Of a DNA stretch of 64,000 nucleotides, positions 1 to 26,629 are shown one piece after another. Position numbers and translations under genes: made by a program. The notes under the pieces were generated by a model that was given only the letters and a program-made list of their open reading frames with translations, did no database searches and was not told where the DNA came from. The stretch lies in NCBI RefSeq assembly GCF_949628265.1, contig NC_088790.1, positions 14,822,545 to 14,886,544 of the forward strand, read 5' to 3'. This stretch comes from Cloeon dipterum (taxonomy: Eukaryota > Arthropoda > Insecta > Ephemeroptera > Baetidae). Numbering within the stretch: position 1 is the stretch's first letter; the number at the start of each line of letters is the position of its first letter.

Positions 1-3000
1 TTCAGCGTGCACCAGGCTTGGCTTGAACTCAAAAGAGCCAACTTCTACTGAGTCACCATCGACATTCAACGCCCGAACCTGGATTGTCAGAGGCTCACGC
101 AGATCTGGACAAATTTACATAGTTACAAAAGTAAGAGGGTACTAACAGAAAGACATTGGGTAATTATAATTACAAGGGATCTGTGGCATAAATATTTGAA
201 AGAAATATTTGATAAGAAAGGGTGATCAGTGGGCCATTTAATGATATATTAAACTTAAATTTTTTGAGAGTTATGTTCTGGGTTTGAAAATTATTAATGG
301 TTAACCATAGAACAAAACACCTAAATATTAACTGAAAGGTGAAATTTACTTTTTAAAATGTCATTTTTATAACTGTAAAAATTGAAACTTATATTAAGTC
401 TTCATTAATTATCAACATATCTCTTAGTGGGTAAAATATTAATTTTCAGCTCAAACGTACCTATGTCTTTTATGCTGTAGTTTGTCACAAGAGGCCCAAC
501 ATTGTGAGGTCCAAAAATAACTGTCCCGTTCCTCCATGCAGAAATATTGTAGGAACGTGGCTCAATCCTGTTTTTCTTAGATCTGGCCCAGCGAAATTTG
601 ATGGCAGATTTGAGGACTTGCACAATTTTGATTTCCAGGGTTGCTTGGGTTGTGTTGATGACTTCTGGCATCATGACTGATTGACAGTTAAAAGTGCCGC
701 CGTCCCCAAGGGGCCATCCATGTTTGGTGCCGCTAATGACGCACACCTTGTATAAAACACCTGAGGTTAGCCCTGAGAAAAAATTGTCTTGAGAATATTC
801 AATTCAGCTATTTCAGAACTAACCTGTGATTGTGGCGTTGTTAACGTCAGTTGGGGTGTCCTTTTCTTTGAACTCATGGGAACCAGCTACCCTGTAGAGA
901 ACCTTTTGGCCGATGACTTTGTTCAGCGTCTCTTGGGACTTGGGTTTTTTCCAGAACACCGTGACTGAGGTTGGACTGTTTGCCTGTACCAAAGTTACCT
1001 GAGGCAAAATCGAGGATCGGCCGCCAGCCGTCCTGCAGGTAACTATTTCGCTGATGTTGGATGCTCCCCCAATGGTGAATCCGATCAAGAAAAATGAGTA
1101 GTTTGTCAACGGCTTCAGCTCCTCCACAATGTGGCTCTTAGCGGTGACAGTAACCTCATTGATTGAAAATAACCGGGCTGAAAAATGACAAATAAATAAA
1201 TATAGGCAATTGAATTCAATGTGCATGATTCTTATATATAAAAATTACTATTATTTAAATTTGGAAAATCAATCTTTTCCTGTTTTATATGCAAGTCAAA
1301 AATCAAAATTGCAACTAAAATATTTGAATGAATATCCAGGTCAAAAAATGTAACTTAAAACTTATCAAAAATAAAAATATATATTTTTTGTATAAAAATT
1401 GTAACATTTTTAAGCAAACGATTTTAAGCGAATTTTAGGTTTTGAGTTGAGTTCAAGGACAGTTTGGTGATTTTAGTTTGGCTAAATTACCGCTAAATTC
1501 TTCTTTCGAATTAAAAAAAGTCAATATTCTTGTCATAAAATATAAAATTGATCAAGAATTAAAACTAAAGAGTAAAAATGAGCATGGTTTTACAGTGTCT
1601 TATCAATTATTGCGCACATACCTGTTTCATAATAATAAAGAGAATATGCTAAAATATTTATAGCTGATGCGTTCCATGAAAAATCAATAGAAGAGGTAGT
1701 AACGTAGCCACATTTTAAATCTGTCGGCGGATCAATGGCAACATCCTTAACGCCCGGCTCTTCAACGAGCCTGAAAGCGGCCCACGCCTCGCCAGCATCG
1801 TTCCATCCGCGGCACTGCCAAGGCAATTCGCCAACGATTAACTAAAAAGATTTCCAAACAGCGTTCTTACCTGATAAATGCCAGCATCGCCAATGAGCGA
1901 GTTTCTTATGATTAGGTGCCAGCCATCCTGCACAACGCGCTCGTTGGTATCCACAAGAGTTCCATTCTTGTACCAGCTGATTTTTGGCGTAGGAACTCCC
2001 GCCATGTCGCATTTGAAGATGATTGGAGTTCCGACGATGCGATTTACACTCTTAGATGTTCTCTTGATTATCGGTGGAACCTGCACCGACACATTGTATC
2101 TCTGCAATGATTGGAAAAAATTATTATATTTCCATTTCTAAACACATTGTGAAAAGCTAAGAGAATCAATGCTAGCCACTACAAACTGAAATATATAAAT
2201 ATATTTATATTGAAACGACTTGAAAAAATTTCCAAATTTTTCCCAATTGAGGTAAACTGGGATTCCGGTTTCAAATCGTTTCAAAAATTACTGTGAAACA
2301 ATCCCATCATATAAAAAGAGATTATTACTGTCTATTGTCCACCCTTTTGCGAAACCCTACAATCACATTCATCACTTACAATCAAGGCATGGTGCTCCTT
2401 GTTCTCAGAGTCAACGTTTGTCGCTTCGCATGTGTAAACATCTGAGTCCCGCTCCATGCTGTTGGGAATCGCGAGAACATTGCTGCCCAAGCGACTTTGC
2501 CTCTCAAAAGATTTCTTCTTGCTTCCAGATAGCGAGCTCCACCGCAACAAGGGCACCGGGTATCCTGAAGCCTCGCACTCAAGGGACAGAGTTTCGTTTG
2601 CCTGCACCTTGATGTCCACTGTCTCAGGCTCCGACAGCATTCGCGCCGGTCGGAAGCGTTGTGACGCTGGCACCACCTCCAGGTAGGCGCCCTCACTGGC
2701 GATCCTGACTTTCTTGTTGCTGGCGATGCAATGGTAAACGCCGGCATCGCTCTCTTGAACCTCATCAATCAGCAGAACTCCCGAGCGTAACACAGAGTAT
2801 CTTCTGAATAAAAGTTCATTTGAAAAATTGTATGTTAGAAATAAGTTTGTTGCATTACCTTTCATGGTTAGGTAGGGTTTTATTGTCCCTCCTCCAAAAA
2901 ATGTTAGGGGTTGGCACCGCTTCAATGTGGCAGCTCAGTCTTGCGGTATCCCCGATTTCCACACTTAAATTCTTTGGAGATTGTGTGAAGCTAGCAGCAA

Positions 3001-6000
3001 AAACTAAAAACAAATTTTAAGGTAGGATTCTTCGACTTCAACTAAACAATTGGTTTTTGAATTGCACAAAAGAAAGCTAATTACCTGCTACTCTGACGGA
3101 AGAGGCCTTGGAAAGGAGAGACAGACCATCGCTGCTTGTCAGCTTGCATTGGTAATTTCCTTCATCTGAATGCCGGGGTGGGTCATGCTCGATCTATCAA
3201 ATTCCAAGAAAATTCGTTAACACGAACACAAACAACAGAAACTTTTTAAATTTTCCCCTGACTTATGATCAAGAAAAACACACTAAGACAAGAGTAATTT
3301 GAAATTTTAGTGGTTTAAAGTAGTTTGAGTTCAATTATGTTATTTCATGATTAAGTAAAATGGAAGATAACATGATCCAGATTTTCCAACCATGTAAATC
3401 TGGGAATTTCATTTTTAAATGTTTCAAAATGAAAAAAGCACTGGACAATATTTTTGTCCTTTTTTAATCCTTTTGCTTTCAAAACAAAATAAGTATTTGA
3501 TTTAGAGCAATTCAAACTTTCAACTAATTTTAACTAAACACATTTCAATCAAGTAATCCCAAATCAATCCAATTTTATATTTATTGCCTACCTCTCTAAA
3601 GGAAAGATATCCGGTGGGATGGATGGAGACCCTGTCACTAAGCACCACAGGTTCTCCATTGACAAGCCAGCTGACCGAGACTGACCCTTCAGAATGGCTG
3701 CCTCCAGGGGCACATGCCAACGCCAGTGGCTTGCCCTTGTAACCGATGACCAACTTAGGAGGTTCCCGAGCGAAACTTAGACCAATGTCATTCTCATCCG
3801 CTGTAAGATTGAGAAATTAGGGATCATTTAAATAAACTACTTTATTAAGCATTCTTTTATAAAGTTCCCAAAGATAGATCTTTTAGATTAAACGAATAAA
3901 TAAAACCACATATAAAAAATATTTATTTATTTTTATTGAGTGTTGTTGGGTTTGAGTTTGACAGTGGTGTTTTAATCAGAACAGTTTTCCCAGAAAGTGA
4001 GAGAAACCAGGACAACCGAAGATAAGCGCAGAATGTGCTAATTATCAGCTTTTTACAGTACCCTGATGGCGTGCAGTGTGTCTTGCACATTTTCTGGGTG
4101 GCATTTAACTTGGGAAATACAACGATGAGCATATATGTTACATCTAACGGATAGACAATCTGCTACTAAGCCTCTAGGGCCAACTTTAACGCCAAAGTTC
4201 GATTTCTAACGTTTTCTAATGACATTATTTTCTGACTGGTTTGATAGGCACAAAAATCAAGTTGGGAATTTAAGACGATCCACCAAGTTTTTCTATATGC
4301 GTCTTATTTACTTAGAAACACCAAATTAATAAACATATTTTTTTGTAATTTTGAGCCATAATTTATATCATCTAGATTCAAAGTGATTTTTTATTGCGGA
4401 TCAGCAGAGCAACTAATCATCTAACTCATTTTTTTGAGCAAAAAACCATCGGGATAACTTCAAAACACCAGAAAACACATAACAGTGCAACAAAGGTTAT
4501 TTTTGAAGGATTTTATTTCGTAGTTTGTCCTTAACTTAATTTTTTACCAGTCCATTCGAAAAACATGTATCAATGTATCGTCAGGATTGATCTAATTGTT
4601 AAAATCAATTTAAATTCACAAGCGAAAATATAACTAACAGCTCTTTTATATGAAGATTAAATAATTGCTACTACCTAAAGCACTGTTGGCTCGCATTGTT
4701 AAGGCATTCTCAGGAGTGTCAAAGCAATGGGAGGTATTTGAGCAGTTCGGAGATCTAATACTGGCTACCCAATGTCAGAGATGGCAAAAAGTGGTTAGTT
4801 TAGTGACTCGATGAAATGCTCAAATTGCTCAACGGGCTGGGAGGCGCACCGCGGCGCCGACTCACTACTTGCTGGTTTGCACCTTTCCAGCATGCGTGAT
4901 TCGGCTTCACGGGACGAATGTCTAGCGTTTCAATACAGTCCTCGGTGCGGAGGCAAGTGGCCCTTGAGTGGGCTGGGTCCCTGTGCGGCCTGGTGCGCCC
5001 ATGTTATCCGTTCGCGGTGTTATTGGGACCCGGGTTTCAGCATTCGTGCTAGTGCGGTGCGCGCCCTTTCCGGTCCTCGCACAAGGATAAAAAGAGCAAA
5101 AAAATAAAAAAAAAATAAAGGAGAGAGAATGGTCTGGAAGCGTCTTAATCGGTTCCCATCAGAAAACGTTCAAATAAACGTTTGTTTAAATTTTCTTTTG
5201 AGCAAAACGCAATGAAATTTAAAAAAATCCATTTCTCATTTTCCAAAACTTTGTTTTCAATCCGACCTGAAAAAATTCAACCGTAGGGGCCGGAAGTATG
5301 AATCACAATTCATACTAAATAGCAGAACAATTCAATTTGAAATCGAGAACAGGCGAAAAGAGCAGTCCCCCCTAAAACGAAAAGTTTCTGCTACACAGCA
5401 CTCGGTTTTGCGCTGTTCGCCGCGATAGTGAGCCACGTGCGTCAATCAAAACAAGCCAGGGCGTAGTAGGGACGAACGCGCAGGCCCTACTACCCCGTGT
5501 GGCGATCGATGAACCGCAAATCGTTACTCGCTACTAAACAAAACCGCCCCCCGCACGCCCCCGGCCCCAAAATGGTCGGCCCGCCAAGAAAATGATATCC
5601 CAAAACACGTCCTGCCGACTGACACAACCCAATCCTCGACTCGGCGCCGAAAATTCCCTGAACGCAACGGGGGCGTGGCCGCCATTCAGCTTATGCAACC
5701 CACCAAACCAGCCCCCGCTCGCCTAACGCCGGATAAACGCGTGCTCCGCCAAATTGCGCAGCCACGAAAACGTCCGCCGCGGGCAGCAAAGGCCGCACAA
5801 AAAGCTCTTTCCTCATTGCACTGCTTTCCGCTTTCCTCATTCGGCCGGCATTTTTCTGCGCAAAACGAGGCCCGAAAAAGCGTATAAAAGATCCAATCCC
5901 TGAGCCGGATAGGAAAAAGTGCAACCAAAACGGACGCCACGCGAATTATTTTGCTTTTCGACTTTGCTCCGAGGACGAGGACGCGCCAAGCAATGTCACG

Positions 6001-9000
6001 TTGCTTCTCGCGCTCACCAAAAATCGATGCAAAAGCCGGATTCTTCGTTCTACAGGCAAAACATGCTGTGCACACGACAATGAGGCCGGAATGAAACAAA
6101 TTAAATTGAATACAGAGTAGCATAAAAAATTAGACTAGATTCGATCGAAGGCAGGCCTCACAACTCAAAAAGAAAGTGCCTACGTGCGAAATCAGAAAAT
6201 AAACTTTAGCCATTTCTTAAAAATAATGGCAGCAGAGAGAGCAGTTAAAAGTCATGATCCGAAGAGCCGACTCTAGCATTGATTCGAAATGCAGACCTGC
6301 TCTTGTCCGCGAGCAATTTCAGCCTGATGACAAAACGCCGTTGAGCGTGTGCAAAAAATCGAGTGCGGTTTATTCAATCCGAGCCTGGAGTCGCGTGAAA
6401 AATCGGAAACAAGAGCACGGGGAGCGTGCTGTCGTCGAGTCGTCGAGACTTTGTTTCCTCCTCTCCTTTGTTTTCCTCCTGTTGCCCGCGACCGGAATTT
6501 ATCTCACCTTTCACGCAACTACTGCTCTTGCATTCAGTTTGAGCGCGCGGGCTTGGATCCGATATTCTATTTCTTTTACTAGTTTCGCTAATGCTAATAC
6601 AACCCTATCTCTTGCAATCGTATTTTAATATTTTGTATGCTGCATGTGAAAATTTTGATGACTTTTGAAAAACTCTAGCTTCATAATCCTGCACTGATAA
6701 TGACACGCGATATCAAGCATTAAATGTTGTCATTAACCACATTACAAATTGGTCTCATTAATTGAAGGTGGTTATTATTATTATATGGATTGAAAAAATT
6801 GAATTGAATTATTGAAAATCCCCTCACATTGTTTCATTTAATTGTGAAAAGATCGAAACCGAGCGCAACCACCACCGTTTGCAACTTTGCATCATCAAGC
6901 TACTCGACTACGTTGCTTTAGCTGATATATAGAAGTGCGTCTTCGGTACGACTGCACCAAAAGTGCGCATCACTTGAATTTTATTTGCATTTTGCCGCAG
7001 TGGTTGCTAAGCATCTGAACCAACAGTTTCAACACTTAAATTCTTTGGAGATTGTGTGAAGCTAGCAGCAAAAACTACACACAAATTTTAAGGTAGGATT
7101 CTTCGACTTCAACTAAACAATTGGTTTTTGAATTGCACAAAAGAAAGCTAATTACCTGCTACTCTGACGGAAGAGGCCTTGGAAAGGAGAGACAGACCAT
7201 CGCTGCTTGTCAGCTTGCATTGGTAATTTCCCTCATCTGAATGTTGGGGTAGGTCATGCTTGATCTATCATATTCCAAGAGAATTCATTAACACCAAAAA
7301 GAAATTTTTAAATTTTACCTTAATTTATGATCAAGAAAATACCCTGAGCCAAGAGTAAATTGAAAGTTTTTAGCGGTTCAAAGTTTTCTGAGATTGGTTT
7401 CAATTGTGTTCTTTCATGAATAAGTAAAATGAAACGAAATTTTATTAAAACTTTTCAATCATTTATTTGTGGGAATTTTGTTTTTAAATATTTCAAAATG
7501 TAATGTGCAAATAATACGATTCCAGTAAAAATAGCACAGGACAATATTTTCGTCTTTTTTCACCTTTTTTTAGTCCATGCTTTCTAAACAAAATAAATAT
7601 TCGATTTAGAGCACTTTAAAATTAAATTTTTTACTTCAAATACATTTCAATCAAGCAATCACAAATCAATCCAATTTTGTATTTATTGCAACCTACCTCT
7701 TTGAAGGAAAGAGATCCGGTGGGCTGGACCGAGACCCTGTCACTGAGCACCACGGGTTCTCCATTGACCAGCCAGCTGACCGAGACTGACCCTTCAGAAT
7801 GGCTGCCTCCAGGGGCACATGCCAACACCAGTGGCTTGCCCTTGTAGCCGATGACAAACTTGGGAGGCTCCCGAGCGAAACTTAAACCGATGTCATTCTC
7901 ATTCGCTGTAAGAAGATTGAAAATTTTGGGATTTTTGTCACAGCTCACAGCATCATATTTTCGATTAAACGAATAAAATAAATCAAAGCATCTGATCCAA
8001 TTGTAAAGCCAGTACGACGGCCCAATTTCCAAACATTCAAGCTACACACTTTAATTTTTCCGTGCGGTCGCCGCGCTATTTTGCGCATAGACGACTTTCC
8101 GCGGCAGGCAGCACAATATTCACGTGCTCTCGATCAAGGTCACGGCCGGTGCGACCGAAAAAGAGAGTTGTCAAAAATCATTTGCCGCTGCTCTGCGACC
8201 AACCAGCCGAGCGGCAGCGCCAAGGGATTGTCCGTCCGCGAAACCGGTCACTTTGCCAACAGCTCTGCTCCTCTGCTCCACGCCGAGATGCACATCCGAT
8301 TCGAAAACTTGCACGCCTTCCCTGCCCGTTTGCCGCACACACGCGCGCGCTCTGGCCCGGCCAGGCAGATTCGCCGCGTCTAATATTATTTTTGCGGCAG
8401 TTAGAAACGCTCTCAAGGTCGTCGGATAAAAGAAGCTCATTGCGGGCCGGATTCGAGACTCGCACATCTCGCAAGATTCAACCAATACAATTACAGCCTT
8501 TGACAAGAACAGAAAATTTAAATTATCTCAAAAAAGTCTCACTGCAAAATTCAATCATCACGCACGCATTTTCCAACGTCCGAAGATATTATTTAATCCC
8601 TGGGAAAAACCGAACGGGTAATACATTCATGTTAATTGATTCGTCCATTCATTCGTGTGCGGGGTGCCACGAGCAGAGCCACGACAAGACAAGAAACCCA
8701 TTCCGATCGGGCCACGGGCAGCAGAATTTCCGTCAGCCCGTCAAAATCTGGTTTCGCGTGCAAAAATAAAAGACGGACGGCCGCATGAATAGGCCGCCGA
8801 GCAGGAGAAGAATCGCAGCCCGTGCGGTGTGCGTTCGCGGGACAAACAATGCGCGAGGGAGCGCATTACGCTCGCTCCATTATCCCATCTTCTGCCAAAT
8901 ATTTTGCACGTGTTTTGCTCCTCGGCTGCTGGCTCTTTTGGTGGTTTGCTTTTATTTCGGGCGAGGGGAGGCGGGAGTGGGGGCCAAGGCCTAGAAAAGG

Positions 9001-9773
9001 TTCGCTTCTAGCCTCCCTCCGCGGGCCTCCCGCCAGCCTGCCTGCCAGCCGTAGGTCCAACCTGACAAACTGGTGGCCAAGGGCCGGGCCGCCGCCGCCC
9101 GCCCCTCAAAGGGCAGCCCGCGGACTCGGCAAAAGGCCGCCGCGCATTCCTCGCTCGCGCCCCGAGTCCTTGACCTTGCGCGGCCGCTCCTAGATTCGCG
9201 TGCCACCGGCCGCCCGCGGAGGCTCCGCAGGACGAGATGAGCCAGCCGGCGAACACCCCGAGAACGGGCGGGCGCGCCGCCCCCGCACGCGCAATATCAC
9301 AAGGGGGTCGACGCCCTCCACGCCCCTGACCGACTTGCGCCCGGCCGAACCCGCCCGGCCGACGCCTTCGGCCACCTCCGACCCGAGGGGCGGCTCTCTC
9401 GCCAAAATATCGCGCACACACAAACACACACCAAATTGCGGCGCAAATTCCGCGCTCGCGCGCCGCTACCGGCCGCCGACGCGCGCCCACGGCCCCTCGC
9501 GCAAAGGTCCCGACCCTGGACCTCCTGACTCCGGCACCACCATACTCTTGACCCCGAACATGCCACCCTGTCCCTGCCCTGACCGAAACACCACGCACTC
9601 GCTCCTCCGACAGCCGACCCACCGCCCGTCAGGCAGTCCCTCCGTCGCCCTTCCGACAAACACGCCCGTCGCGCCCGGACCCACAAGGCCCAGCAAGGCC
9701 CACACTTACCTCGGGCGAAGCCTAGTGTTGCTATTGTACACAAAAGGCAGTGGAGTAGCGTTCGAGAAGCCAT
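1..9773 (-). CDS. Protogenin/DCC-type Ig-FN3 receptor, copy A (partial, 3' part beyond window)
   Basis: Exons seen (high to low): 9710-9773 (ATG at 9773, signal peptide MASRTLLHCLLCTIATLGFA), 3592-3800 and 3085-3193 (Ig1), 2859-3003, 2380-2803 (Ig2-Ig3), 1871-2101 and 1622-1814 (Ig4 and start of FN3-1), 824-1177, 461-772, and 1-104, which runs off the edge. All junctions are GT/AG and phases agree. Each Ig domain keeps its Cys pair (for example LACAPGG and YQCKL in Ig1). By comparison with copy B the full protein should have four Ig domains, five FN3 domains, one membrane span and a cytoplasmic tail, as in protogenin/IGDCC4. Those relatives are neural or developmental adhesion receptors, so this role is inferred from family. 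Oddities are an extra Ig1 cassette in intron 1 (7007-7905) and an extra 56-nt intron in Ig4. No frameshift or stop is seen, so it looks functional. The family call is firm to Ig/FN3 and less so to the protogenin subgroup. Confidence 0.82.
1815..1870 (-). other. 56-nt intron unique to copy A, inside the Ig4 exon
   Basis: Copy B encodes Ig4 and the first half of FN3-1 in one 424-nt exon (20932-21355). Copy A splits the same 424 nt as 231 + 193. On the minus strand the break reads TATCAG, then GTAAGA to TTGGCAG, then TGCCGCGG, in phase 0, directly before the second Ig4 cysteine codon. Reading through the segment would meet a TAG, so splicing is required for an intact protein. Every other exon boundary compared between the paralogs is shared, so this is a lineage-specific intron gain in A or loss in B. 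Confidence 0.85.
3801..5269. other. Intron 1 of copy A outside the palindrome
   Basis: AT-rich intron sequence between the resident Ig1 exon and the outer edge of the left arm. Apart from the candidate retroposon at 4680-5122 I see no exon, RNA gene or clear regulatory site. The stretch 3801-3905 resembles the distal edge of the inserted cassette (7906-7986), which marks the end of the duplicated unit. Confidence 0.5.
4680..5122 (+). mobile_element. Candidate retroposed insertion with A-rich tail
   Basis: A GC-rich block lies in the otherwise AT-rich intron 1 of copy A and ends in an A-rich tail of about 25 bases at 5096-5122. No counterpart is seen in intron 1 of copy B. A 98-codon open frame (4811-5104) runs through it but matches nothing I recognise. 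Composition plus the oligo-A end suggests a LINE or SINE 3' fragment inserted in the plus orientation. No target-site duplication or internal Pol III boxes could be defined. Confidence 0.3.
7007..7905 (-). other. Duplicated Ig1 exon cassette of copy A, ending in a possible alternative terminal exon
   Basis: Three exon-like blocks sit in intron 1 of copy A. 7697-7905 (209 nt) and 7156-7264 (109 nt) encode a complete Ig1 with intact splice sites, a phase 1-0-1 frame and both Cys. It differs from the resident Ig1 (3592-3800, 3085-3193) at about 7 of 70 and 3 of 36 residues. The third block, starting at 7074, copies only the start of the next exon (FAASFTQSPKNLSV). It then runs into arm sequence, reaches an in-frame TAG at 7009-7007, and has AATAAA on the minus strand at 6985-6980. 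The phase-symmetric Ig1 unit could be used in tandem with the resident Ig1, as an alternative to it, or with the truncated exon to make a 149-residue secreted protein. Which is used cannot be told from sequence. Confidence 0.7.
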
Positions 9774-9783
9774 AAATACGAAG

Positions 9784-9834
9784 TCATAGGGACGCACTGT
9801 AAACAGTGTAAACACTTGCCACTCTCGCCGCCAT
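9784..9834 (-). promoter_or_regulatory. Upstream ORF in copy A leader (16 codons)
   Basis: Minus-strand ATG at 9834 opens a 16-codon frame that stops at TGA (9786-9784), 10 nt before the signal-peptide ATG at 9773. The same uORF is in copy B because the arms are identical here. It would be expected to dampen or gate translation if the transcript starts upstream. Confidence 0.5.
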
Positions 9835-9963
9835 ACGGCTTTGTGATTAGTTCGCGCACACGCCCACCTCAAGGCGCTGCGCTCGATCAACCCCTCCCCG
9901 TCGATTATTGCCTCAGCGCGCAAACCCCCCGCGAGTCGCGAAATTTGTGAAAGCTTCGCTTCT

Positions 9964-10652
9964 GGCCCAGTAGAGTTGTTGAATGCTTTTTTATTTTGAT
10001 ATTGCTTGTTTGTTGTTTTAAATGATATGATATTATTCCTTTTGGCCGCTAGGTGATGTTATGCTGGATACGCCAAACTAGCTGAATTCTGATCAAATTA
10101 CACTACATTCCGTATAATGAAATAGTAGATAATAATTTTATAATTTTTGTTCATTTTAAACATAATTCAAATATAATTTATCTATGCCAGTGGGTGATGT
10201 CACAACATGAATCCTCCGTAGTCAATAATTATACAAATTCACACCTACAGCATGAAAATTAATTGAAAAACTAAATTAAAACCCATACAATCGCAGAAGC
10301 CAGAGAAAATACGTAAATTTTCCTATTATTTTAATCATTTACCGCTATAACTAGATGCATAATTTGATTTCAAATCAAATACTTCGTTCAAGTTCATTAA
10401 ACAACACCTTGATCATGATCTATTGAATTAAAATATTGAGCATCGTTTCACCTTGAAATATTTTGAATATTTCATATTTATTTGTAGCGGTTGCAGCAGT
10501 AACAAAATCTGTGATAATATTTTATTGAAAATAGTAGATTTTCATGGAATATATGAAGAAAGGTTATCAGCATGAAAAAAATGACTGAAAATGGGATGGA
10601 TATTTGATGCAATAAATATAAACAGACTTTGGAGAAGTTAGACAAAAACTTA
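9964..10652. other. Gap between copy A leader and the 3' end of eIF3L
   Basis: Unique AT-rich sequence just outside the left arm. It must hold the upstream promoter of copy A. An A/T-rich stretch readable on the minus strand as AAATAAAAAA lies near 9990 and could serve as a weak TATA-like element. No gene is seen. Confidence 0.4.
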
Positions 10653-10658
10653 ATTTAT
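10653..10658 (-). terminator. eIF3L poly(A) signal
   Basis: AATAAA on the minus strand 36 nt after the eIF3L stop codon. Confidence 0.6.
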
Positions 10659-10693
10659 TAACACTGACACCTAGATTTAAACCAATTGCACAT

Positions 10694-13414
10694 TCAGATC
10701 TTAACCTGCTTGATTTTCCTGTGCAGCTCTTCAAACTTCATGATTTTTCTGATGAAAAACTCGCCATATCTGTGTGCAACCTTAGTGTCAGCAATGTGGA
10801 TCATGTCATGGTCGATGTAAAAGTCGAGCTCTGAGCCGGACTGGAACTGGCCCTCAAGTCCAGAGGCTCCCTTGCTCCACACCAGATTCTTCATCTTGTG
10901 CTTGAAGCAGAGCAGGTGGATGATCAGGTCCTCGGTCTCTTTGGCAATGTCGACCTTGGCGACGGTGCCTTCATTTGATCCCTCAGATCGAGCCTGCTGC
11001 GCCATGAAGGACGCCAGTTTCGACACAGGCAGTGTGGTGTATAGCTTCAGGTATGAGCGGATGGTCGGTAACATTTTCTGCTGCCGCACCTCGTCCATGA
11101 ACACGTTGGTTTGGTGCTTCATGGCCTCCTTGACCGAGTCTTCCGATTCGACGTTGGTCGAACAAGGCGAGAGGAACTTAGGGCAGCCAAAGTTGAAGCA
11201 CTGCTCGAACTCGTTCAGGTCTCCGTACTGCATCTTGTACATCTTCTCATGGAAGTTGCGTTCTCGCAGCGACTGCTGGATTGACTCATCCACGCACATT
11301 GGGTGCAGCACCAGGCAGATGGCCAGCAGAGTGTACATCTGATCAGTTTGCTTGTTAATCTAGAACAATTGTTTCGAAATTTAGAAACTGGAAGATGAAA
11401 CATTTTTAAACATTAAACATGGCCGAGGATTTTGGTGAGTCATGGCTTTGCATCTACTTTTCACAAATTTAAAGGTTTGTCTAGCATTTAATTCAATTTT
11501 ATGAATTATTATTTATTGTAGTTAATGAGTTTAGTTTCAAAAATTTAAGTTTATTGTGGGCTGACAGGGCAACTCTGCCCCAAATCAGCACACATCCATA
11601 AAGTAATGATACAATTATGTAGGAACAACATTTGGAAGGAAGTAATAATTAATGGTAGCTTGAGAATATTGTTTGTTGAGTTTAGATACCAAATAAGTAT
11701 TGATTAGAATAACCCGGATTAAACATATATAATAAAAATGATGAGGCAAAGTATTATACAAATTGTTGCTGTCACTTCATTATATTTTTAAGATGTTGAT
11801 TTGATGTAAATACTCCAATTAATTATTATTTTGTTTATGCAGGAATATTAATGATATTGCCTTGAAAGATAAATAATGAAAATAATAACTTTTCAATTTG
11901 CACAAGTTTTCATTTGCATGCAGGTTCAATGGCAGGGATACAAGAGATAACATTATTTTGAATAGATATGAAAAAACTTAAATGCACTTCCTCAGATTGA
12001 TTTTCAAACTAACAACTAATTATGAAAGTCAAATTATTTTTCAATTAATTTAATATTTTACGGAATTGATTTAGTTCAATGCCTCTGCATCAATACGGCA
12101 GGAAGAAAAATCATGAAATTACAAGCCAATATTTTTTTACTGTAGTTTTGGTAAAATTTAAAAAAAAAATCAATGTAACATACCTGATCATTTTGGTACG
12201 AACGAGTTTGGAACAGCTGCTTTGTGCGCTGAATGTACAGCAAAATTGAGCTGAATGTCTGGATAGCGTCAGCATATCGCCTCATCATCATGTAGGCAAA
12301 TCCAACGTAGTAAGAAGTTGTTATCTGGCACGCGGGCACATGCGAATACTGCAATAAAACTCATTTGTCAACAAAAGACTTCAACCTCAATAAAGTCAAT
12401 CATCACCTTCTTGTGAATTTCCATGTTTTCCAGAACTTTGATGGCTTGGTAGTAATCACCAAGCAGAGAATGCAACCTCAGAAGGCCAACCAGGCTGAAG
12501 TAGCCCAGCATTTTGTAGAGCGAATGGCGCCCAAAGTCGCCAGCCACTGTGTCAGGGTCGCCACCGCTGGCGTACACTTCCAGCTGTTTCTTAATGTTGG
12601 ACTTGTCGACCAACGAGTGGAGCACGTTCAGTACGCACAGCACGTTCCACATTTTGTTCTGGTTCAAGGTCTCGATCTCTTCGGGAGTCCTCTTTCCACC
12701 TCTTGCCCTGTTGAAACAAAAAATATGATAGCAACATATATAGTTTCCATAAGAAATTCAGAAAGTACCTGTACTGAGCAAAGGTTTGGAATTGGTAGAC
12801 AAATTCATCAACCAATTCCCAAAGCCAAAGGTCTGGCAGTTCTAGAGACACTGGCGTCTCTCCATTGAGAATATAGTTAAAGAACTCGCAGTAGTTGTAG
12901 AAGGACTGGACTCTCTGTTCGAAAGAAGGTCCACCAGGGATGCGGGCGTAAATGTGCCGGTAGTACAACTCCTTATACAGAATAAGGAAAACAGGGTCGT
13001 TGTCCACAAGTGGAGCAATATCAGCCTCATCTGGCCATGACTTCTTGTCGAAGAATTGCTCAGTGAGCTTGGGGAATCTGGCGAATATTTTCAAAATAGG
13101 ATTTTGGAAAATGAATTATAACAACATCAGACTCACGAGTTCTCGTAGTAATTTTGAATTTCAAAAATCATGCCCTCAGAGATAGCGTTCTTAAAGTATG
13201 TGATGAACTTGTTGACCACATCAGGCACCTTGTAGGCATATTGTCGGTCATATTCCATATCCAGGTGAGGGTCTCCCGTGTGGCCATCATAGTCCCCGCC
13301 ATAATTGTACTCATACCCAGTCTACAATAACAAAGATATGAGATTGAAGAGATTTTCAGGGATTAAAATTTTATTAGAATCACTTACACTCTCTCCATAT
13401 TCCTCTGAATACAT
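10694..13414 (-). CDS. eIF3L: Eukaryotic translation initiation factor 3 subunit L
   Basis: Six coding exons: 13388-13414, 13137-13321, 12769-13077, 12407-12707, 12184-12348, 10694-11359. They total 1653 nt, 550 residues, close to insect eIF3L. The product is a core eIF3 subunit that helps load mRNA onto the 40S ribosome in the cytoplasm. Recognisable blocks are [17 protein letters not shown] near the N terminus, [37 protein letters not shown], the TPR/PCI-type region [23 protein letters not shown], and the C-terminal [20 protein letters not shown]. The start MYSEEYGES is the only ATG giving the family N terminus. The gene fills the spacer of the inverted repeat, and its 5' end faces copy B about 200 bp away. 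Its largest intron (11360-12183) shows nothing else. Confidence 0.96.
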
Positions 13415-13620
13415 TTTGAAAGCGATTTTCTAGTCCAAAGTGGTCCAATTTGTAAGAATGTGGATGGAAAAACAAAACACGTGAAATCTGCCGGCCACGA
13501 TACAACACAACCGGAAGTGATGGCAATGGCAGTGGCTAATGATGCTGACTAGAGAGCCAGCAAGCGGATTATATAAAAACTACAATTAAGTGAGCAACAT
13601 AACCAGCGCCACCACAGTTC
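13415..13620. promoter_or_regulatory. Divergent promoter region, eIF3L (-) and receptor copy B (+)
   Basis: About 400 bp separate the eIF3L ATG (13414) from the copy B ATG (13812). TATATAAAAA at 13570-13579 on the plus strand would place the copy B start near 13600, just before the right palindrome arm begins. Copy A has no counterpart to this unique stretch, so the two receptors have different core promoters. Confidence 0.55.
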
Positions 13621-16600
13621 TCAGAAGGAAGCTTTCACAAATTTCGTGACTCGCGGGGGGTTTGCGCGCTGAGGCAATAATCGACGGGGAGGGGTTGATC
13701 GAGCGCAGCGCCTTGAGGTGGGCGTGTGCGCGAACTAATCACAAAGCCGTATGGCGGCGAGAGTGGCAAGTGTTTACACTGTTTACAGTGCGTCCCTATG
13801 ACTTCGTATTTATGGCTTCTCGAACGCTACTCCACTGCCTTTTGTGTACAATAGCAACACTAGGCTTCGCCCGAGGTAAGTGTGGGCCTTGCTGGGCCTT
13901 GTGGGTCCGGGCGCGACGGGCGTGTTTGTCGGAAGGGCGACGGAGGGACTGCCTGACGGGCGGTGGGTCGGCTGTCGGAGGAGCGAGTGCGTGGTGTTTC
14001 GGTCAGGGCAGGGACAGGGTGGCATGTTCGGGGTCAAGAGTATGGTGGTGCCGGAGTCAGGAGGTCCAGGGTCGGGACCTTTGCGCGAGGGGCCGTGGGC
14101 GCGCGTCGGCGGCCGGTAGCGGCGCGCGAGCGCGGAATTTGCGCCGCAATTTGGTGTGTGTTTGTGTGTGCGCGATATTTTGGCGAGAGAGCCGCCCCTC
14201 GGGTCGGAGGTGGCCGAAGGCGTCGGCCGGGCGGGTTCGGCCGGGCGCAAGTCGGTCAGGGGCGTGGAGGGCGTCGACCCCCTTGTGATATTGCGCGTGC
14301 GGGGGCGGCGCGCCCGCCCGTTCTCGGGGTGTTCGCCGGCTGGCTCATCTCGTCCTGCGGAGCCTCCGCGGGCGGCCGGTGGCACGCGAATCTAGGAGCG
14401 GCCGCGCAAGGTCAAGGACTCGGGGCGCGAGCGAGGAATGCGCGGCGGCCTTTTGCCGAGTCCGCGGGCTGCCCTTTGAGGGGCGGGCGGCGGCGGCCCG
14501 GCCCTTGGCCACCAGTTTGTCAGGTTGGACCTACGGCTGGCAGGCAGGCTGGCGGGAGGCCCGCGGAGGGAGGCTAGAAGCGAACCTTTTCTAGGCCTTG
14601 GCCCCCACTCCCGCCTCCCCTCGCCCGAAATAAAAGCAAACCACCAAAAGAGCCAGCAGCCGAGGAGCAAAACACGTGCAAAATATTTGGCAGAAGATGG
14701 GATAATGGAGCGAGCGTAATGCGCTCCCTCGCGCATTGTTTGTCCCGCGAACGCACACCGCACGGGCTGCGATTCTTCTCCTGCTCGGCGGCCTATTCAT
14801 GCGGCCGTCCGTCTTTTATTTTTGCACGCGAAACCAGATTTTGACGGGCTGACGGAAATTCTGCTGCCCGTGGCCCGATCGGAATGGGTTTCTTGTCTTG
14901 TCGTGGCTCTGCTCGTGGCACCCCGCACACGAATGAATGGACGAATCAATTAACATGAATGTATTACCCGTTCGGTTTTTCCCAGGGATTAAATAATATC
15001 TTCGGACGTTGGAAAATGCGTGCGTGATGATTGAATTTTGCAGTGAGACTTTTTTGAGATAATTTAAATTTTCTGTTCTTGTCAAAGGCTGTAATTGTAT
15101 TGGTTGAATCTTGCGAGATGTGCGAGTCTCGAATCCGGCCCGCAATGAGCTTCTTTTATCCGACGACCTTGAGAGCGTTTCTAACTGCCGCAAAAATAAT
15201 ATTAGACGCGGCGAATCTGCCTGGCCGGGCCAGAGCGCGCGCGTGTGTGCGGCAAACGGGCAGGGAAGGCGTGCAAGTTTTCGAATCGGATGTGCATCTC
15301 GGCGTGGAGCAGAGGAGCAGAGCTGTTGGCAAAGTGACCGGTTTCGCGGACGGACAATCCCTTGGCGCTGCCGCTCGGCTGGTTGGTCGCAGAGCAGCGG
15401 CAAATGATTTTTGACAACTCTCCTTTTCGGTCGCACCGGCCGTGACCTTGATCGAGAGCACGTGAATATTGTGCTGCCTGCCGCGGAAAGTCGTCTATGC
15501 GCAAAATAGCGCGGCGACCGCACGGAAAAATTAAAGTATGTAGCTTGAATGTTTGGAAATTGGGCCGTCGTACTGGCTTGACAGTTGGATCAGATGCTGT
15601 GCAACCACTGCGGCAAAATGCAAATAAAATTAAAGTGATGCGCACTTTGGTTCAGTCGTATATATATACCGAAGACGCACTTTTATTTCTCGGCAAAAAT
15701 AACCTTAGTTCAGGAGCTTGACGATGTAAACGCTCGTGGTTGCTCCAATTTCGATCTTCTCACAATTAAATGAAATAACGCGAGGGGATTTTCTATAACA
15801 ACCACCTCCGATTATTGAGACCGATGCTGAGTGCGGTAAATGACAACATTTTAATGTTTGATATCACGTGTCGTCATCAGTGCAGGATTATAAAGCTTTA
15901 GTTTTTCATTTTATTTCTGTTTTTAAACAAGTCATCAAATTGTTCACACGCAGCATACAAAAGTGAAAAGTTTATTTAAATGCATTTGCGAGAAATAGGG
16001 ATGAAATACCACTGTCGAAGCTAGAAAAAAATGTGCACAAATCGGATCCAGGTAAACATCCAAGCACTCTCTCGAACTGAATGCAAGAGCATTGCGTGAA
16101 AGGTGAGATGAATTCCGGTCGCGGGCAACAGGAGGAAAACAAAGGAGAGGAGGAAACAAAGTCTCGACGACTCGACGACAGCACGCTCCCCGTGCTCTTG
16201 TTTCCGATTTTTCACACGACTCCGCAGGCTCCGATTGAATAAACCGCACTCGATTTTTTGCACACGCTCAACGGTGTTTTGTCATCAGGCTGAAATTGCT
16301 CGCGGACAAGAGCAGGGCTGCATTCGAACGTGAAAAAGGTACAAGAGCAATAAATAATGGCAAAAGATGAACAAATATATCCGCTGTTGTGATTTTCTCC
16401 TTTGGCTCGAAAAGTATCGTCGTTATGCCAATGGCGAGGTGTTGAATTTGTCTCGCGCGGCAGACAATGCGTACTGAGCGCTCACTCACTCGTGGTCGCC
16501 ATTCAGCTTTTCAGCTGGGTGCAGTACAGGTTGGAAGCGTAGTTTCCCAAACCGAACGAGAATGGGTGGCATTTAGGCTCTTCTGTTTTGCGGGAGCGAA

Positions 16601-17642
16601 TTCTGATTTATATTCACCTATTCCGGATCAATGTTAGAGTTAACGGCTCTCTCTGCTACCATTATTTTTAAGAAATGGCTCAAGTTTGTTTTCTGATTTC
16701 GCACGTAGTCACCTTCTTTTTGAGTTATGAGGCACGCATTCAATCGAATAAAACAAAACCAAGCCTAATAATTATTTTTTATGCTACTCCGCATTCAAGT
16801 TAATTTTTTTCATTCCGGCCTCATTGTCGTGTGCACAGCATGTTTTGCCTGTAGAACGAAGAATCCGGCTTTTGCATCGATTTTTGGTGAGCGCGAGAAG
16901 CGACGTGACATTGCTTGGCGCGTCCTCGTCTTCGGAGCAAAGTCGAAAAGCAAAATAATTCGCGTGGCGTCCGTTTTGGTTGCACTTTTTCCTATCCGGC
17001 TCAGGGATTGGATCTTTTATACGCATTTTCGGGCCTCGTTTTGCGCAGAAAAATGCCGGCCGAATGAGGAAAGCGGAAAGCAGTGCAATGAGGAAAGAGC
17101 TTTTTGTGCGGCCTTTGCTGCCCGCGGCGGACGTTTTCGTGGCTGCGCAATTTGGCGGGGCACGCGTTTATCCGGCGTTAGGCGAGCGGGGGCTGGTTTG
17201 GTGGGTTGCATAAGCTGAATGGCGGCCACGCCCCCGTTGCGTTCAGGGAATTTTCGGCGCCGAGCCGAGGATTGGGTTATATCAGTCGGCAGGACGTGTT
17301 TCGGGGAATAAATTTCTTGGCGGGCCGACCCTTTTAGGGCCGGGGGCGTGCGGGGGGCGGTTTTGTTTTGCTGCGAGTATCGATTGGCGGTGCATCGATC
17401 CGCGCATGGGGTAGTAGGGCCTGCGCGTTCGTCCCTACTACGCCCTGGCTTGTTTTGATTGACGCACGTGGCTCACTATCGCGGCGAACAGCGCAAAACC
17501 GAGTGCTGTGTAGCAGCAACTTTTCGTTTTAGGGGGAACTGCTTTTTACGCCTATCCTTTATTTCAAAATGAAACGCAATAGCCACTGACGCTTCTAAAA
17601 ATTGTGATTCATTTCCGTCCAACGTTAAAATTTGAATTTTCA
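13620..17642. repeat. Right arm of large inverted repeat
   Basis: Reverse-complement partner of 5270-9963, holding the leader, signal-peptide exon and about 3.8 kb of intron 1 of copy B. It lacks the Ig1 cassette, so it shows the uninterrupted insertion site near 15590. It carries a TATATATA run near 15660 that is shorter in the left arm. The long open frames readable in both arms follow from high GC content and are not supported as genes. Confidence 0.95.
13751..13801 (+). promoter_or_regulatory. Upstream ORF in copy B leader (16 codons)
   Basis: ATG at 13751 opens MAARVASVYTVYSASL and stops at TGA 13799-13801, 10 nt before the signal-peptide ATG. It is identical in the copy A leader. It lies downstream of the predicted start site, so ribosomes scanning the leader would meet it first. 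Confidence 0.5.
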
Positions 17643-20600
17643 GTGATATTCCTGGGTCGTCATTGAGTTTTGTAGGCTTCAATTAATATTACTTGTAAAT
17701 GATTAGTTACAAAAATGCTAATAATATTCTCTGCACTGTTTTTAATTAATAAGGGTCGTGGCTCTTTTGAAAATAAATCTAACTTTTCCTTGCTGTACAG
17801 CTCGTCTCGGTATTGTGATTTGTTTTCTTCTCATAAATTATATCAAGAGTCCTCATAGTTAAGATAACCTGAATATAGTCAGTTTGTTATATTTTTCATT
17901 TTTCGTAAATTTTCCTGCACTTTACTTTTACTGTGGAACGATTTTGTTTAAAAAAAAAATCCGAAAATGAGTTAGCCCCAATTAATCAATTCATTTTCAC
18001 GCACCACATTTAAATTCATAATTTAATTGTTGATCCGACGATACCACCGTTTGCAGATCAAATGCATTGCATAAAATCATATTCTCGTGATTTACGATAA
18101 GTTGAAAGCACTTCCCGGACCATTTTAGTCGAGGGATTTATTACAACTCTGGTTTACAAATAAAGAATGAGCTATCAAACAACAAACTAATTAAAATTCC
18201 CCAGTCTCTTCGGGGAATAAATTTGGCCTACGTGACCGCACTCGTTCGTTTGCGTTAAAAATTCAGCACGCTACCTGAATGATATACCCTGAATTTTTAA
18301 CTGTGTTTGTTATTATCACGTGCAGCAGGTTCACTTTTCCAACAAACGACTCATTTCGTGCGTCCAGAATGACGACGAACCCCTCCTTGACAACCTCTCT
18401 TATTCTGAACTTATTCTACGCAGTTTGGAGCTTGCCGCGCTGCGCGTTTCCCTTTTATACCTATGTATAGTGGCAGGATTTAATTATGGTTCGTTGGGTT
18501 CTTTCATTATCTGCACAATAAGTTCATTTAAATGCCAGTTAGTCTACGCACGCAGTGATCATAGAGAAATATTAAAAATAATGGAGCCTTGAGCTCCTTG
18601 AGCTATAAAATCCTTTGGCATATCTCTCTATGTTCTACACACGTGCTGTGAAACTGACATGAATGAGGAGAAGAAATTCAATCCCGTCGATTCACAATGA
18701 TGCGATTGTTCATTCCATTTTGCTTTTCAACGGCCAACGTGCGAGCAAAAATTTGAACTATGGTTATTTTGATTTTTCTTATTATACAGAACTCGTTTTT
18801 TTTAACATTTTGCATTTTTCTTTTTTGTTTCAGTGGATGAGACTGAAATCGGTCTAAGTTTCGCTCGGGAGCCTCCCAAGTTAGTCATCGGTTACAAGGG
18901 CAAGCCACTGGTATTGGCATGTGCCCCTGGGGGCAGCCATTCGGAAGGGTCAGTCTTGGTCAGCTGGCTGGTCAATGGAGAACCCGTGGTGCTTAGCGAC
19001 AGGGTCTCCATCCAGTCCAACGGATCTCTTGCCTTCAAAGAGGTAGATTGCATTGAGATAAACTGATTTTCGTAACGAAGAATTAAATTCTAGAAATATG
19101 GTTGATCTCAAACAATAAAGAAATTCAACTATTTTTTTTCAATTTTATGCATCTCATTTGTTAGAAAATAAATTAAAAATTGTTTAGAAAATAAATTATA
19201 ATTTTTTTGGCGTTATTTAATAGATCGAGCATGACCTACCGCAGAAATCAGATGAAGGAAATTACCAATGCAAGTTGACAAGCAGCGATGGCCTGTCTCT
19301 CCTCTCCAAGACCTCCTCCGTCAGAGTAGCAGGTAATTAATTGTTTGAAAATCTTATAAAACTATCATCACGCGTAAAGAGAAAATCTGCAATGTAAACT
19401 GATTTTTTTTTATTTATATATTAAACAATCTACAAAAATTAGGATTTTTGTCTGGAGTTTTTCATGCAAAAGACTAGTTTTGACAAAATGGGGACGGTCT
19501 AAATTTTAAATTGATTTACAGTGTAAAGTCCGTCATTATCATCATTTTTCCTACTAATTAAGTTAAATTTCTTGAGTTAACGAGATATCAATAAAAATTC
19601 AGATGGTGTGATATGGAAAAATTTTGCTTGTTTTTCGGAGATGAAGCTCTTGAGGAATAAAAAAAAATTATTTTTTCAATATTGGTTTTTTTAAACGTAC
19701 TTCAGTTTTAGATTAAGAAACTTTTTTTCCTTGAGCTATCAACAGGTCTAAAACACTTATGTTATAAATATTTGAGCTCTCGTCATGTTGAAAATACTCT
19801 ATATATAGTTTAACTTTTTTTAAGGATTTTTTACCACGCTCCAAATCTAGTCAAAATCAATTTTATGGTTGATTTTGTGATGATTAAATTTGAAGAAAAT
19901 AATTAGGCATGATGAAAACCCTGCCTGTGTATTCGTACTAGTTTAGATTCATTTTTCATTTACACCAGAAAAATAATAAAAATTGTAAAAATTGAACGCA
20001 GTGCCCTAATCATAAACATTTGTGTTTGTTACAAGTGATGGCTGCTAGCTTCACACAATCTCCAAAGAATTTAAGTGTGGAAATCGGGGATACCGCAAGA
20101 CTGAGTTGCCACATTGAAGCGGTGCCAACCCCTTACATTTTTTGGAGGAGGGACAATAAAACCCTACCTAGCCACGAAAGGGAAAAGTAATGCAACAAAC
20201 TCAATTCTAACATACAATTTTTCACATTAACTTTAATTCAGAAGATACTCCGTGTTACGCTCGGGAGTCCTGCTGATTGATGCGGTTCAAGAGAGCGATG
20301 CCGGCGTTTACCATTGCATCGTCAACAGCAAGAAGGTCAGGATCGCCAGCGAGGGCGCCTACCTGGAAGTGGTGCCAGCGTCACAACGCTTCCGACCGGC
20401 GCGAATGCTGTCGGAGCCTGAGACAGTGGACATCAAGGTGCAGGCAAACGAAACTCTGTCCCTTGAGTGCGAGGCATCAGGATACCCGGTGCCCTTTTTG
20501 CGGTGGAGCTATCTTACAGATAACCAGGAAATTGACCTGCAACTACATGATCGCTTGGGCAGCAATGTTCTCGCGATACCCAACATCACGGAGCAACACT

Positions 20601-25373: not shown

Positions 25374-26600
25374 CGTTTAATTTCACTGTGCATAGTTTTC
25401 AAGAGAAGTTTAACACAAGAAGTTTTTCAGAAGAAGTGAACACGGGTAAACTACCTCACAGTCGGTACCTGATTCTGTAAATAATATTTGATCGACGAAT
25501 CTCGTTTATTTTCTCTCTTTCGCTCTCAAAAAGATTTCTGTGCATTTAGCTGAGTTGAGCTTTTGTTTATGCTCACAGTGCATGCAGTTTTGTTCACGCT
25601 CGATGCGACGGCGGTAACATCTCAAAAGAATCGTGCAGCAATAATGTCGTAAATTTTTGTCGTGTAAATACGTAGAGGAGAATCGGAAATTTAGGACGCG
25701 AAACGAGGAAATAGTGGCAAATTAATGGAACTCTTATCTACCTCAAGTGCTTCACTCAGGAACACTTCTCTCCCAGTCGTGTCAAGTATTTCTTTTTTAA
25801 TAATAATAATATTTATACATTGAATTTGTAAGTGCGAGACTTGCCTTTTGATTGCTTGCTAATTTTCTACAACTTTTTACGTCTGGTCCCAAGCAAAGTT
25901 TCCAAAGGTTGTCTCGAAAGTTTATCCTTTATTGTTGCTTGCTCTCCTTTGAGTCACACATTCCACTAAGCTCTTAAGATGTTTTAGCGTTATCCGTTCA
26001 CAGATCGTCCCTTAAAATCGAAATTATATGTTTTGTTACGCGAATCAAAATGTTTTGGTCCCGGTGACTGTTTACAAAATTTTCTCATTTGTAAATTGTG
26101 TGTGTAACGAGCTTAGTGATTGATAATTGAAAGAATGATTGGTGATAATGGCATGCTTGAATATCAAGTTAGTTCACTTTCAGAAAGAAAAACAAGATTT
26201 GGCAAGTTGGCCTCTCTCATTTTATTCAGCCGCTACTTATGAGTTTACCGTTCCGTCTCAGTATAGCCAGATATTTTTTATTTTGATTTATCAGTAAAAT
26301 TCAAATCACACAGGTATATCTGAAAAAAGTAAGATTGAGTCTTGTGCAGATATCTGATTGAAATAGTAGAGTCCGGACTCTAGATTGAAATTTTGAGATC
26401 ATCGTGTTTACTTCTACTTAAGCGAGCAGATTTCTTCCTCTTCCTTTATGTTTGTTTGAATATCCCGTGAAAGTTTTGAATTTATTATTGTTAACAATGC
26501 ACATTTACTAGCATTATCATTTAACGTCTGAGCAAGCCAAGCTATGATGCGGAGTTTTTCCCAATTTTAAATCAAGCAAAACAAGACAACATCTTACAAA

Positions 26601-26606
26601 AATAAA
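26601..26606 (+). terminator. Candidate poly(A) signal of copy B
   Basis: AATAAA about 1.2 kb after the stop, followed by a second overlapping A/T run. The 3' UTR (25374 to about 26630) shows no other gene. Confidence 0.35.
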
Positions 26607-26629
26607 GAATAATAAATAATAACTTTTAC

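What the first reader, a model, noticed from the sequence alone, without database searches (positions are those of the whole stretch)
5270..17642. Large near-palindrome: two divergent receptor paralogs flanking eIF3L
Arms of about 4 kb in reverse complement enclose a 3.66-kb spacer that contains the whole eIF3L gene. Each arm carries the leader, signal-peptide exon and much of intron 1 of one receptor. Such arms allow recombination that would flip eIF3L, and they can form cruciforms. An inverted duplication of the 5' half of a receptor across a housekeeping gene is unusual.
Basis: seen in the sequence. Interest (0 to 1): 0.8.

Follow-up and report, generated by a model that had tools for sequence, protein, structure and literature searches.

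The report
Inverted receptor twins around eIF3L
Two mirror-image copies of a cell-surface receptor gene flank the housekeeping gene eIF3L; they look old in the middle, but both of their ends appear to have been rewritten to match by gene conversion, a known kind of process seen here in an unusually clear form.

Summary
The near-palindrome is real but is only the inner part of a larger structure. Two complete, intact genes of one Ig/FN3 receptor (4 Ig, 5 FN3, TM, tail; DCC-like) lie head-to-head around single-copy eIF3L. The arms are about 13.6 and 13.9 kb (window -3598..9964 and 13622..27528). Divergence is strongly mosaic. A 1,775-bp tract with leader, exon 1 and part of intron 1 has no differences. 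dS is 0.24 in exons 2-3, 0.11 in exons 4-5a, 1.12 in exons 5b-9, 0.24 in exons 10-12 and 0.05 in exons 13-16. Introns 5-9 cannot be aligned; introns 10, 11 and 13-15 and the 3' UTR are 87.5-100% identical. The step lies inside exon 5. Best reading: an old inverted duplication whose two ends were overwritten by ectopic gene conversion while the middle of the ectodomain diverged. The identical tract fades out at a 956-bp insert in the left gene: a second, in-frame copy of the Ig1 exons, between imperfect 18-bp direct repeats. Inversion of eIF3L is possible but untested. Hsp70 and Amy pairs of Drosophila, Caenorhabditis inverted pairs and TLR1/TLR6 are analogues. Verdict: new member of a known kind, with an unusually clear two-ended pattern.

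The parts
1..9964 (-). Left receptor gene and left arm inside the window (E1 to part of E9; the rest of E9 to E16 lie outside, at window -1571..0 in locus L003)
   Evidence: Hand-made exon models join to one open frame of 1,072 aa (1,178 with both Ig1 copies); homology to the right arm
13622..27528 (+). Right arm, with the right receptor gene (start codon 13812, stop codon ends 25373; 16 exons, 1,077 aa)
   Evidence: Hand-made exon models, one open frame; homology to the left arm
8163..9937 (-). Left copy of the perfectly identical tract (1,775 bp: leader, exon 1, part of intron 1)
   Evidence: No differences to 13648-15422
13648..15422 (+). Right copy of the perfectly identical tract
9710..9773 (-). 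Exon 1 of the left receptor (signal peptide by eye)
   Evidence: no difference to the right copy
13812..13875 (+). Exon 1 of the right receptor (signal peptide by eye)
7028..7983 (-). Inserted cassette in left intron 1: second copy of exons 2 and 3 (7697-7905, 7156-7264) and the first part of exon 4
   Evidence: 83% to 2956-3824; open, phase 1-1; genome search finds only the source copy and the right-gene exons besides itself; imperfect direct repeats at both edges
2956..3824 (-). Source copy of exons 2 and 3 (3592-3800, 3085-3193) of the left receptor
   Evidence: intron 2 of the two left copies 86% over 377 aligned bases
5331..6248 (-). Outer arm block (intron 1), left copy, 93%
16640..17573 (+). 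Outer arm block (intron 1), right copy, 93%
6283..7027 (-). Less similar arm block (77%) beside the insert, left copy
15581..16328 (+). Less similar arm block (77%), right copy
10694..13414 (-). eIF3L, the gene in the spacer
   Evidence: Pfam PF10255 (Paf67) on three exon pieces; single genome match of one exon; start codon read by eye, not every exon tested
20242..23524 (+). Right exons 5-9; from about aa 263 (inside exon 5) they form the diverged middle (rest of Ig3, Ig4, FN3 1-3)
   Evidence: dS 1.12 for exons 5b-9; introns 5-9 unalignable
24668..25798 (+). Right 3' end (TM, tail, 3' UTR), nearly identical to the left 3' end
   Evidence: 94.8% over the block 24629-25798, introns and UTR included; dS 0.05 in exons 13-16

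Best explanation
A receptor gene of about 14 kb was duplicated in inverted orientation, leaving eIF3L between the copies. The duplication is old: exons 5b-9 show its age (dS about 1.1, introns unalignable). Since then ectopic gene conversion between the facing arms has repeatedly overwritten the 5' end (leader, signal peptide, much of intron 1, and in older rounds the exons of Ig1 to early Ig3) and the 3' end (FN3-5, TM, tail, 3' UTR). The latest 5' event is recent and left 1,775 bp without a difference. It runs to within 26 bp of the spacer on one side and fades over about 180 bp before the inserted Ig1 cassette on the other, as expected if conversion is blocked by non-homology. The outcome is two intact receptors with the same leader and nearly the same tail but different middle ectodomains. 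Shown: structure, mosaic, open frames, boundaries. Inferred: conversion as the cause, its recency, shared regulation, different ligands.
For: dS along one gene pair: exon 1 0; exons 2-3 0.24, 4-5a 0.11, 5b-9 1.12, 10-12 0.24, 13-16 0.05. Permutation of 754 same-amino-acid codons: CUSUM range 57.3, largest of 10,000 shuffles 28.3. Noncoding agrees: of 14 introns tested (2-15), introns 4, 10, 11, 13, 14, 15 align end to end at 87.5-100%, intron 12 weakly (z 5.7), introns 2, 3, 5-9 no better than shuffled (z below 2); 3' UTR block 96% over 423 bases. The step lies inside exon 5 (dS 0.03 for aa 223-262, 0.98 for aa 263-302), so it does not follow an exon border. No third gene that could have supplied the middle was found: besides the pair, no listed match exceeds 42% identity, and the best-scoring is 36-37%. 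GC3 is higher in homogenised than in diverged codons (right 367/573 against 263/498, p=0.0002; left 353/573 against 269/498, p=0.013), as described for conversion tracts in PMC1852091 and, for GC in general, in PMC3924832 (passages).
Against: Exons 2 and 3 (dS 0.24) lie between introns that do not align at all; conversion confined to exons, or constraint on synonymous sites, must be assumed. The block beside the insert is less similar (77%) than the block farther out (93%), so similarity does not simply fall with distance. The 3' UTR block is homogenised but its GC (38-39%) is ordinary, so GC enrichment is not a general mark of conversion here. The exon 5 border (aa 263) was set by eye from the difference map; a three-segment fit on same-amino-acid codons put it at aa 298, still in exon 5. 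No reads, second individual or related species was available, so conversion is inferred from one assembly.
Confidence: 0.87

Rival explanations
1. Assembly effect: the two arms are real but differ slightly, and the assembler gave both the same consensus over about 2 kb.
For: No reads were available; identity is perfect over 1,775 bp.
Against: The arms keep single differences at both ends of the tract, lie in a 33.2-Mb contig, and the rest of the mosaic (3' end, step in exon 5) does not depend on this tract.
Confidence: 0.07
2. Recent inverted duplication, after which the middle of one copy was replaced from a third, older paralog.
For: Would give young ends and an old middle.
Against: No third gene close to either middle among the matches listed (only best candidates are scored, and the donor could have been lost). 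The ends are not of one age (dS 0, 0.24, 0.11, 0.24, 0.05). The middle grades into the right end across exon 9 (40-codon windows 1.16, 0.61, 0.29, 0.13).
Confidence: 0.05
3. Selection alone: the ends are under strong constraint and the middle is relaxed, without conversion.
For: Amino-acid identity is also higher at the ends (525/573 against 255/498), and exons 2-3 are alike while their introns are not.
Against: 1,775 bp of mostly noncoding DNA without a difference, introns 14 and 15 at 100% and 95%, and a roughly twentyfold difference in dS between exons 5b-9 and 13-16 are hard to get from protein constraint.
Confidence: 0.01
4. A large fold-back transposon whose terminal inverted repeats are the arms.
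For: Long inverted repeats with identical inner ends.
Against: Two arm probes find only the two arms in the genome; the arms carry receptor exons in place.
Confidence: 0.005

Closest known systems
Palindromic Hsp70 pairs and Amy-p/Amy-d of Drosophila (PMC3924832; passages and section 10 seen)
   Same: Linked paralogs in mirror-image orientation kept alike by ectopic gene conversion
   Different: For Amy of the melanogaster group the paper says concerted evolution is confined to coding sequence; here noncoding 5' and 3' ends are alike and the coding middle has escaped. Here an unrelated gene fills the spacer
TLR1/TLR6 of mammals (PMC2077338; abstract and outline seen)
   Same: TM and signalling end homogenised by conversion, N-terminal ectodomain diverged
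   Different: Tandem, not inverted; one C-terminal region homogenised, not both ends; shown across nine species, which could not be done here
Inverted homologous gene pairs of Caenorhabditis (PMC1803023; part 1 of 4 seen)
   Same: Divergent or convergent paralogs with arms up to 100% identical although the duplication is old
   Different: Spacers of the two examples seen are 126 and 414 bp; here 3.66 kb with eIF3L.
Human Y palindrome P6 (PMC3723533; abstract and passages seen)
   Same: Arms kept alike by GC-biased conversion; inversions occur but are rare
   Different: A sex-chromosome palindrome followed in 378 chromosomes; here one assembly, sex linkage unknown
Regional conversion in fugu protocadherins (PMC1852091; passages seen)
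   Same: Part of the coding sequence homogenised among paralogs, with raised GC3
   Different: Paralogs of a large gene cluster, not an inverted gene pair

Membership tests
Inverted paralog pair under ectopic gene conversion | Linked paralogs in inverted orientation | tested here: met
Inverted paralog pair under ectopic gene conversion | Mosaic divergence with tracts far younger than the rest, coding and noncoding alike | tested here: met
   exception: exons 2-3 are alike but introns 2 and 3 are not
Inverted paralog pair under ectopic gene conversion | Paralogs more alike within a species than orthologs between species | not testable with these tools
   The own genome has no relatives in the collection
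Inverted paralog pair under ectopic gene conversion | Shared polymorphism between copies | not testable with these tools
   One assembly only
GC-biased gene conversion | Higher GC in converted stretches | tested here: inconclusive
   Inner arms 59% GC against 100 background 2-kb windows from 20 stretches, mean 40.1%, max 49.6%; identity-GC Spearman 0.56 in 36 windows of the 5' arm, 0.52 in 47 with the 3' block; GC3 raised; but the 3' UTR block is 38-39% GC and no outgroup polarises the changes
DCC/neogenin/protogenin-like receptors | 4 Ig domains, then several FN3 domains, one TM, tail | tested here: met
   Pfam: 4 I-set and 5 fn3 stretches; TM read by eye. This architecture is not unique to the family
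DCC/neogenin/protogenin-like receptors | Closest by sequence to DCC rather than to other Ig/FN3 families | tested here: inconclusive
   Best solved-structure match DCC, E 3.5e-48, but Robo2 at 2.6e-47 and Dscam at 2.6e-45 are close behind; no tree made
DCC proper (Frazzled) | 6 FN3 domains (recalled) | tested here: not met
   5 fn3 stretches in the right protein at E up to 1
DCC proper (Frazzled) | Conserved P1-P3 tail motifs (recalled) | not tested
   Tail of about 130 aa not searched for them
Recurrent inversion between inverted repeats | Both orientations of the spacer occur | not testable with these tools
   One assembly only

The most novel reading that the evidence does not exclude
The diverged middle is kept apart by selection while conversion keeps promoter side, leader and signalling tail the same. 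This makes two receptors with one output and two specificities, the left one with a choice of two Ig1 domains. The same recombination keeps flipping eIF3L, so both orientations segregate in the population.
Probability: 0.15. Interest if true: 0.65.

Novelty: new member of a known kind. Interest (0 to 1): 0.42.

Why it matters
It is a compact natural record of how conversion and divergence share one gene pair: an old middle between two rejuvenated ends, with the latest conversion stopping at an insertion whose own divergence can be measured. It warns that a tree or date taken from whole genes of such a pair would mislead, and it offers a locus where inversion of a housekeeping gene could be tested by PCR.

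Tried and rejected
Fold-back transposon: not supported, two arm probes are two-copy. Third-gene donor for the middle: none among the listed matches. Known noncoding RNA in the arms: no Rfam match at gathering scores in the whole window. GC-biased conversion as the sole cause of the GC-rich arms: not accepted, because the homogenised 3' UTR is not GC-rich. Positive selection on the middle: not supported as a whole (exons 6-9 dN/dS 0.31 with dS near saturation); exon 13 (TM) has dN/dS 2.8 but on one synonymous difference only, and exon 14 has 1.2 on one. Splicing of the cassette to its exon 4 fragment: would give a stop after 22 codons; no expression data, so left open. The first exon 11 border, had no splice donor and was replaced. 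The grouping of exons 2-5 as one block (dS 0.26) mixed two parts and was replaced by the split. Species: I guessed a mayfly from memory and genome size; the listings (listings and abstract starts only) did not settle it, and nothing here rests on it. That the organism is an arthropod is also my recall of the gene set, not a result.

Full report
What was checked. Self-comparison of the window shows inverted arms at 7984-9964 / 13622-15601 (99.6%), 5331-6248 / 16640-17573 (93%) and 6283-7027 / 15581-16328 (77%). An exact map of the inner block has no differences from left 8163-9937 to right 13648-15422 (1,775 bp), five substitutions in the last 180 bp towards the insert, and one substitution and one indel at the spacer end. 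The upper 95% bound on divergence in the perfect tract is 3/1775 = 0.17%. At a mutation rate near 3e-9 per site per generation (recalled for Drosophila) that is below about 0.3 million generations; this is an inference.

The structure is larger than reported. The assembly (190 Mb, 10 contigs; window = C5:14822545-14886544) was used to read 20 kb to the left. With it, homologous blocks run from -3598 to 9964 and from 13622 to 27528. So the whole receptor gene is duplicated in inverted orientation, with a 3.66-kb spacer. Exon models of the right gene (16 exons, 1,077 aa) and the left gene (1,072 aa, or 1,178 aa with both Ig1 copies) are open throughout. They were made by hand from homology and splice sites, without RNA. 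The spacer gene is eIF3L (three exon pieces match PF10255); its 221-aa exon has one match in the genome.

What the receptor is. Pfam gives 4 Ig and 5 fn3 stretches. The best solved structure is DCC (E 3.5e-48), but Robo2 (2.6e-47) and Dscam (2.6e-45) follow closely (237 distinct sequences matched, 60 shown). I call it DCC-like as a working name. Four probes (part of exon 5, tail, right middle, left middle) listed no further close copy in the genome; other matches were at 42% identity or less.

The mosaic. Nei-Gojobori dS over 1,071 aligned codons, gapped codons left out: exon 1 0; exons 2-3 0.24, exons 4-5a 0.11, exons 5b-9 1.12, exons 10-12 0.24, exons 13-16 0.05. Exon 7 alone is 2.3, that is saturated. 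In 40-codon windows dS goes from 0.03 (aa 223-262) to 0.98 (aa 263-302) inside exon 5, and falls more gradually across exon 9. The 5a/5b border at aa 263 was set by eye from the difference map. Among 754 codons with the same amino acid (Met and Trp left out) 152 differ; the CUSUM range is 57.3 against at most 28.3 in 10,000 shuffles, and a three-segment fit breaks at aa 298 and 732 with rates 0.11, 0.48 and 0.09. Of the 14 introns tested (2-15), 4, 10, 11, 13, 14 and 15 align end to end at 87.5-100%, 12 weakly, and 2, 3, 5, 6, 7, 8, 9 not above shuffled. Much of intron 1 is covered by the arm blocks. Protein identity is 525/573 in homogenised and 255/498 in diverged codons.

Why gene conversion. 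One gene pair has one duplication date; dS from zero to saturation within it points to overwriting. Noncoding tracts largely share the pattern, and the step falls inside an exon. Raised GC3 in homogenised codons and GC-rich arms (59%, against 100 background windows with maximum 49.6%) fit GC-biased conversion, but the homogenised 3' UTR (38-39%) does not, so that part is inconclusive. What does not fit well: exons 2 and 3 (dS 0.24) stand between unalignable introns, and the 77% arm block lies between two more similar ones.

The insert. Left intron 1 holds 956 bp (7028-7983) that repeat the gene's own exons 2, 3 and the start of exon 4 (83%; intron 2 of the two copies 86% over 377 bases). Its edges carry an imperfect 18-bp direct repeat (15 of 18 by eye) that is present once at the matching place in the right arm (sequences), as after insertion at a staggered break. 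Exons 2+3 start and end in phase 1, so the cassette could be added, skipped or used in place of the other copy without a frame change (three combinations open). dN/dS between the two left copies is about 0.25 (0.043/0.173), in keeping with constraint on both. The left copies share an alignable intron 2, while neither shares it with the right gene, and their dS (0.17) is a little lower than to the right gene (0.23 and 0.24; 12 against 15 and 16 synonymous differences). So the cassette is probably younger than the last exchange of exons 2-3 between the genes. The perfect tract ends beside the insert, so the latest conversion is probably younger still. The order duplication, older conversions, insert, latest conversion is an inference.

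The flip of eIF3L. A crossover in the inner arms would invert the spacer and leave both receptors with the same 5' ends, so it could be nearly neutral. In human P6 conversion far outnumbers inversion (56 conversions against 3 inversions in 83 phased chromosomes; PMC3723533, passages). No data here bear on whether it happens.

Known or new. Mirror-image paralogs homogenised by conversion are established (PMC3924832, passages and one section; PMC1803023, part 1 of 4). Domain-limited homogenisation of receptors is reported for TLR1/TLR6 (PMC2077338, abstract) and protocadherins (PMC1852091, passages). Five literature searches were run for related cases (20 listed of 109; 10 of 14; none found; 15 of 33; 10 of 64). 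Apart from the papers named above I saw listings only, and among the listed titles and abstract starts I saw no case that joins inverted receptors, two homogenised ends, a diverged middle and an unrelated spacer gene. The library is partial, so this is no claim of absence. I file it as a new member of a known kind.

Noticed in passing
window 1815-1870: The left receptor model has an extra 56-bp intron inside exon 6 that the right copy lacks: an intron gain or loss between paralogs.
   Followed up: partly
window 4780-5100: A dispersed repeat in left intron 1: 40 candidates of 2,529 were scored; apart from itself the full-length matches are 94-97% identical. Kind of element not determined.
   Followed up: partly
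window 7027-7085: The insert ends in a fragment of exon 4 with its splice acceptor; reading on from it gives a stop after 22 codons.
   Followed up: partly
window 61989-62079: A 91-bp self-complementary stretch (92%), a hairpin or small element.
   Followed up: no
window 39805-39996 and 45077-45256: An inverted pair of about 190 bp at 74%.
   Followed up: no
window 37418-37819 and 28175-28639: A homeodomain exon (resembles rough, by recall) and a HIT-domain gene (DcpS_C and HIT) to the right of the palindrome.
   Followed up: partly
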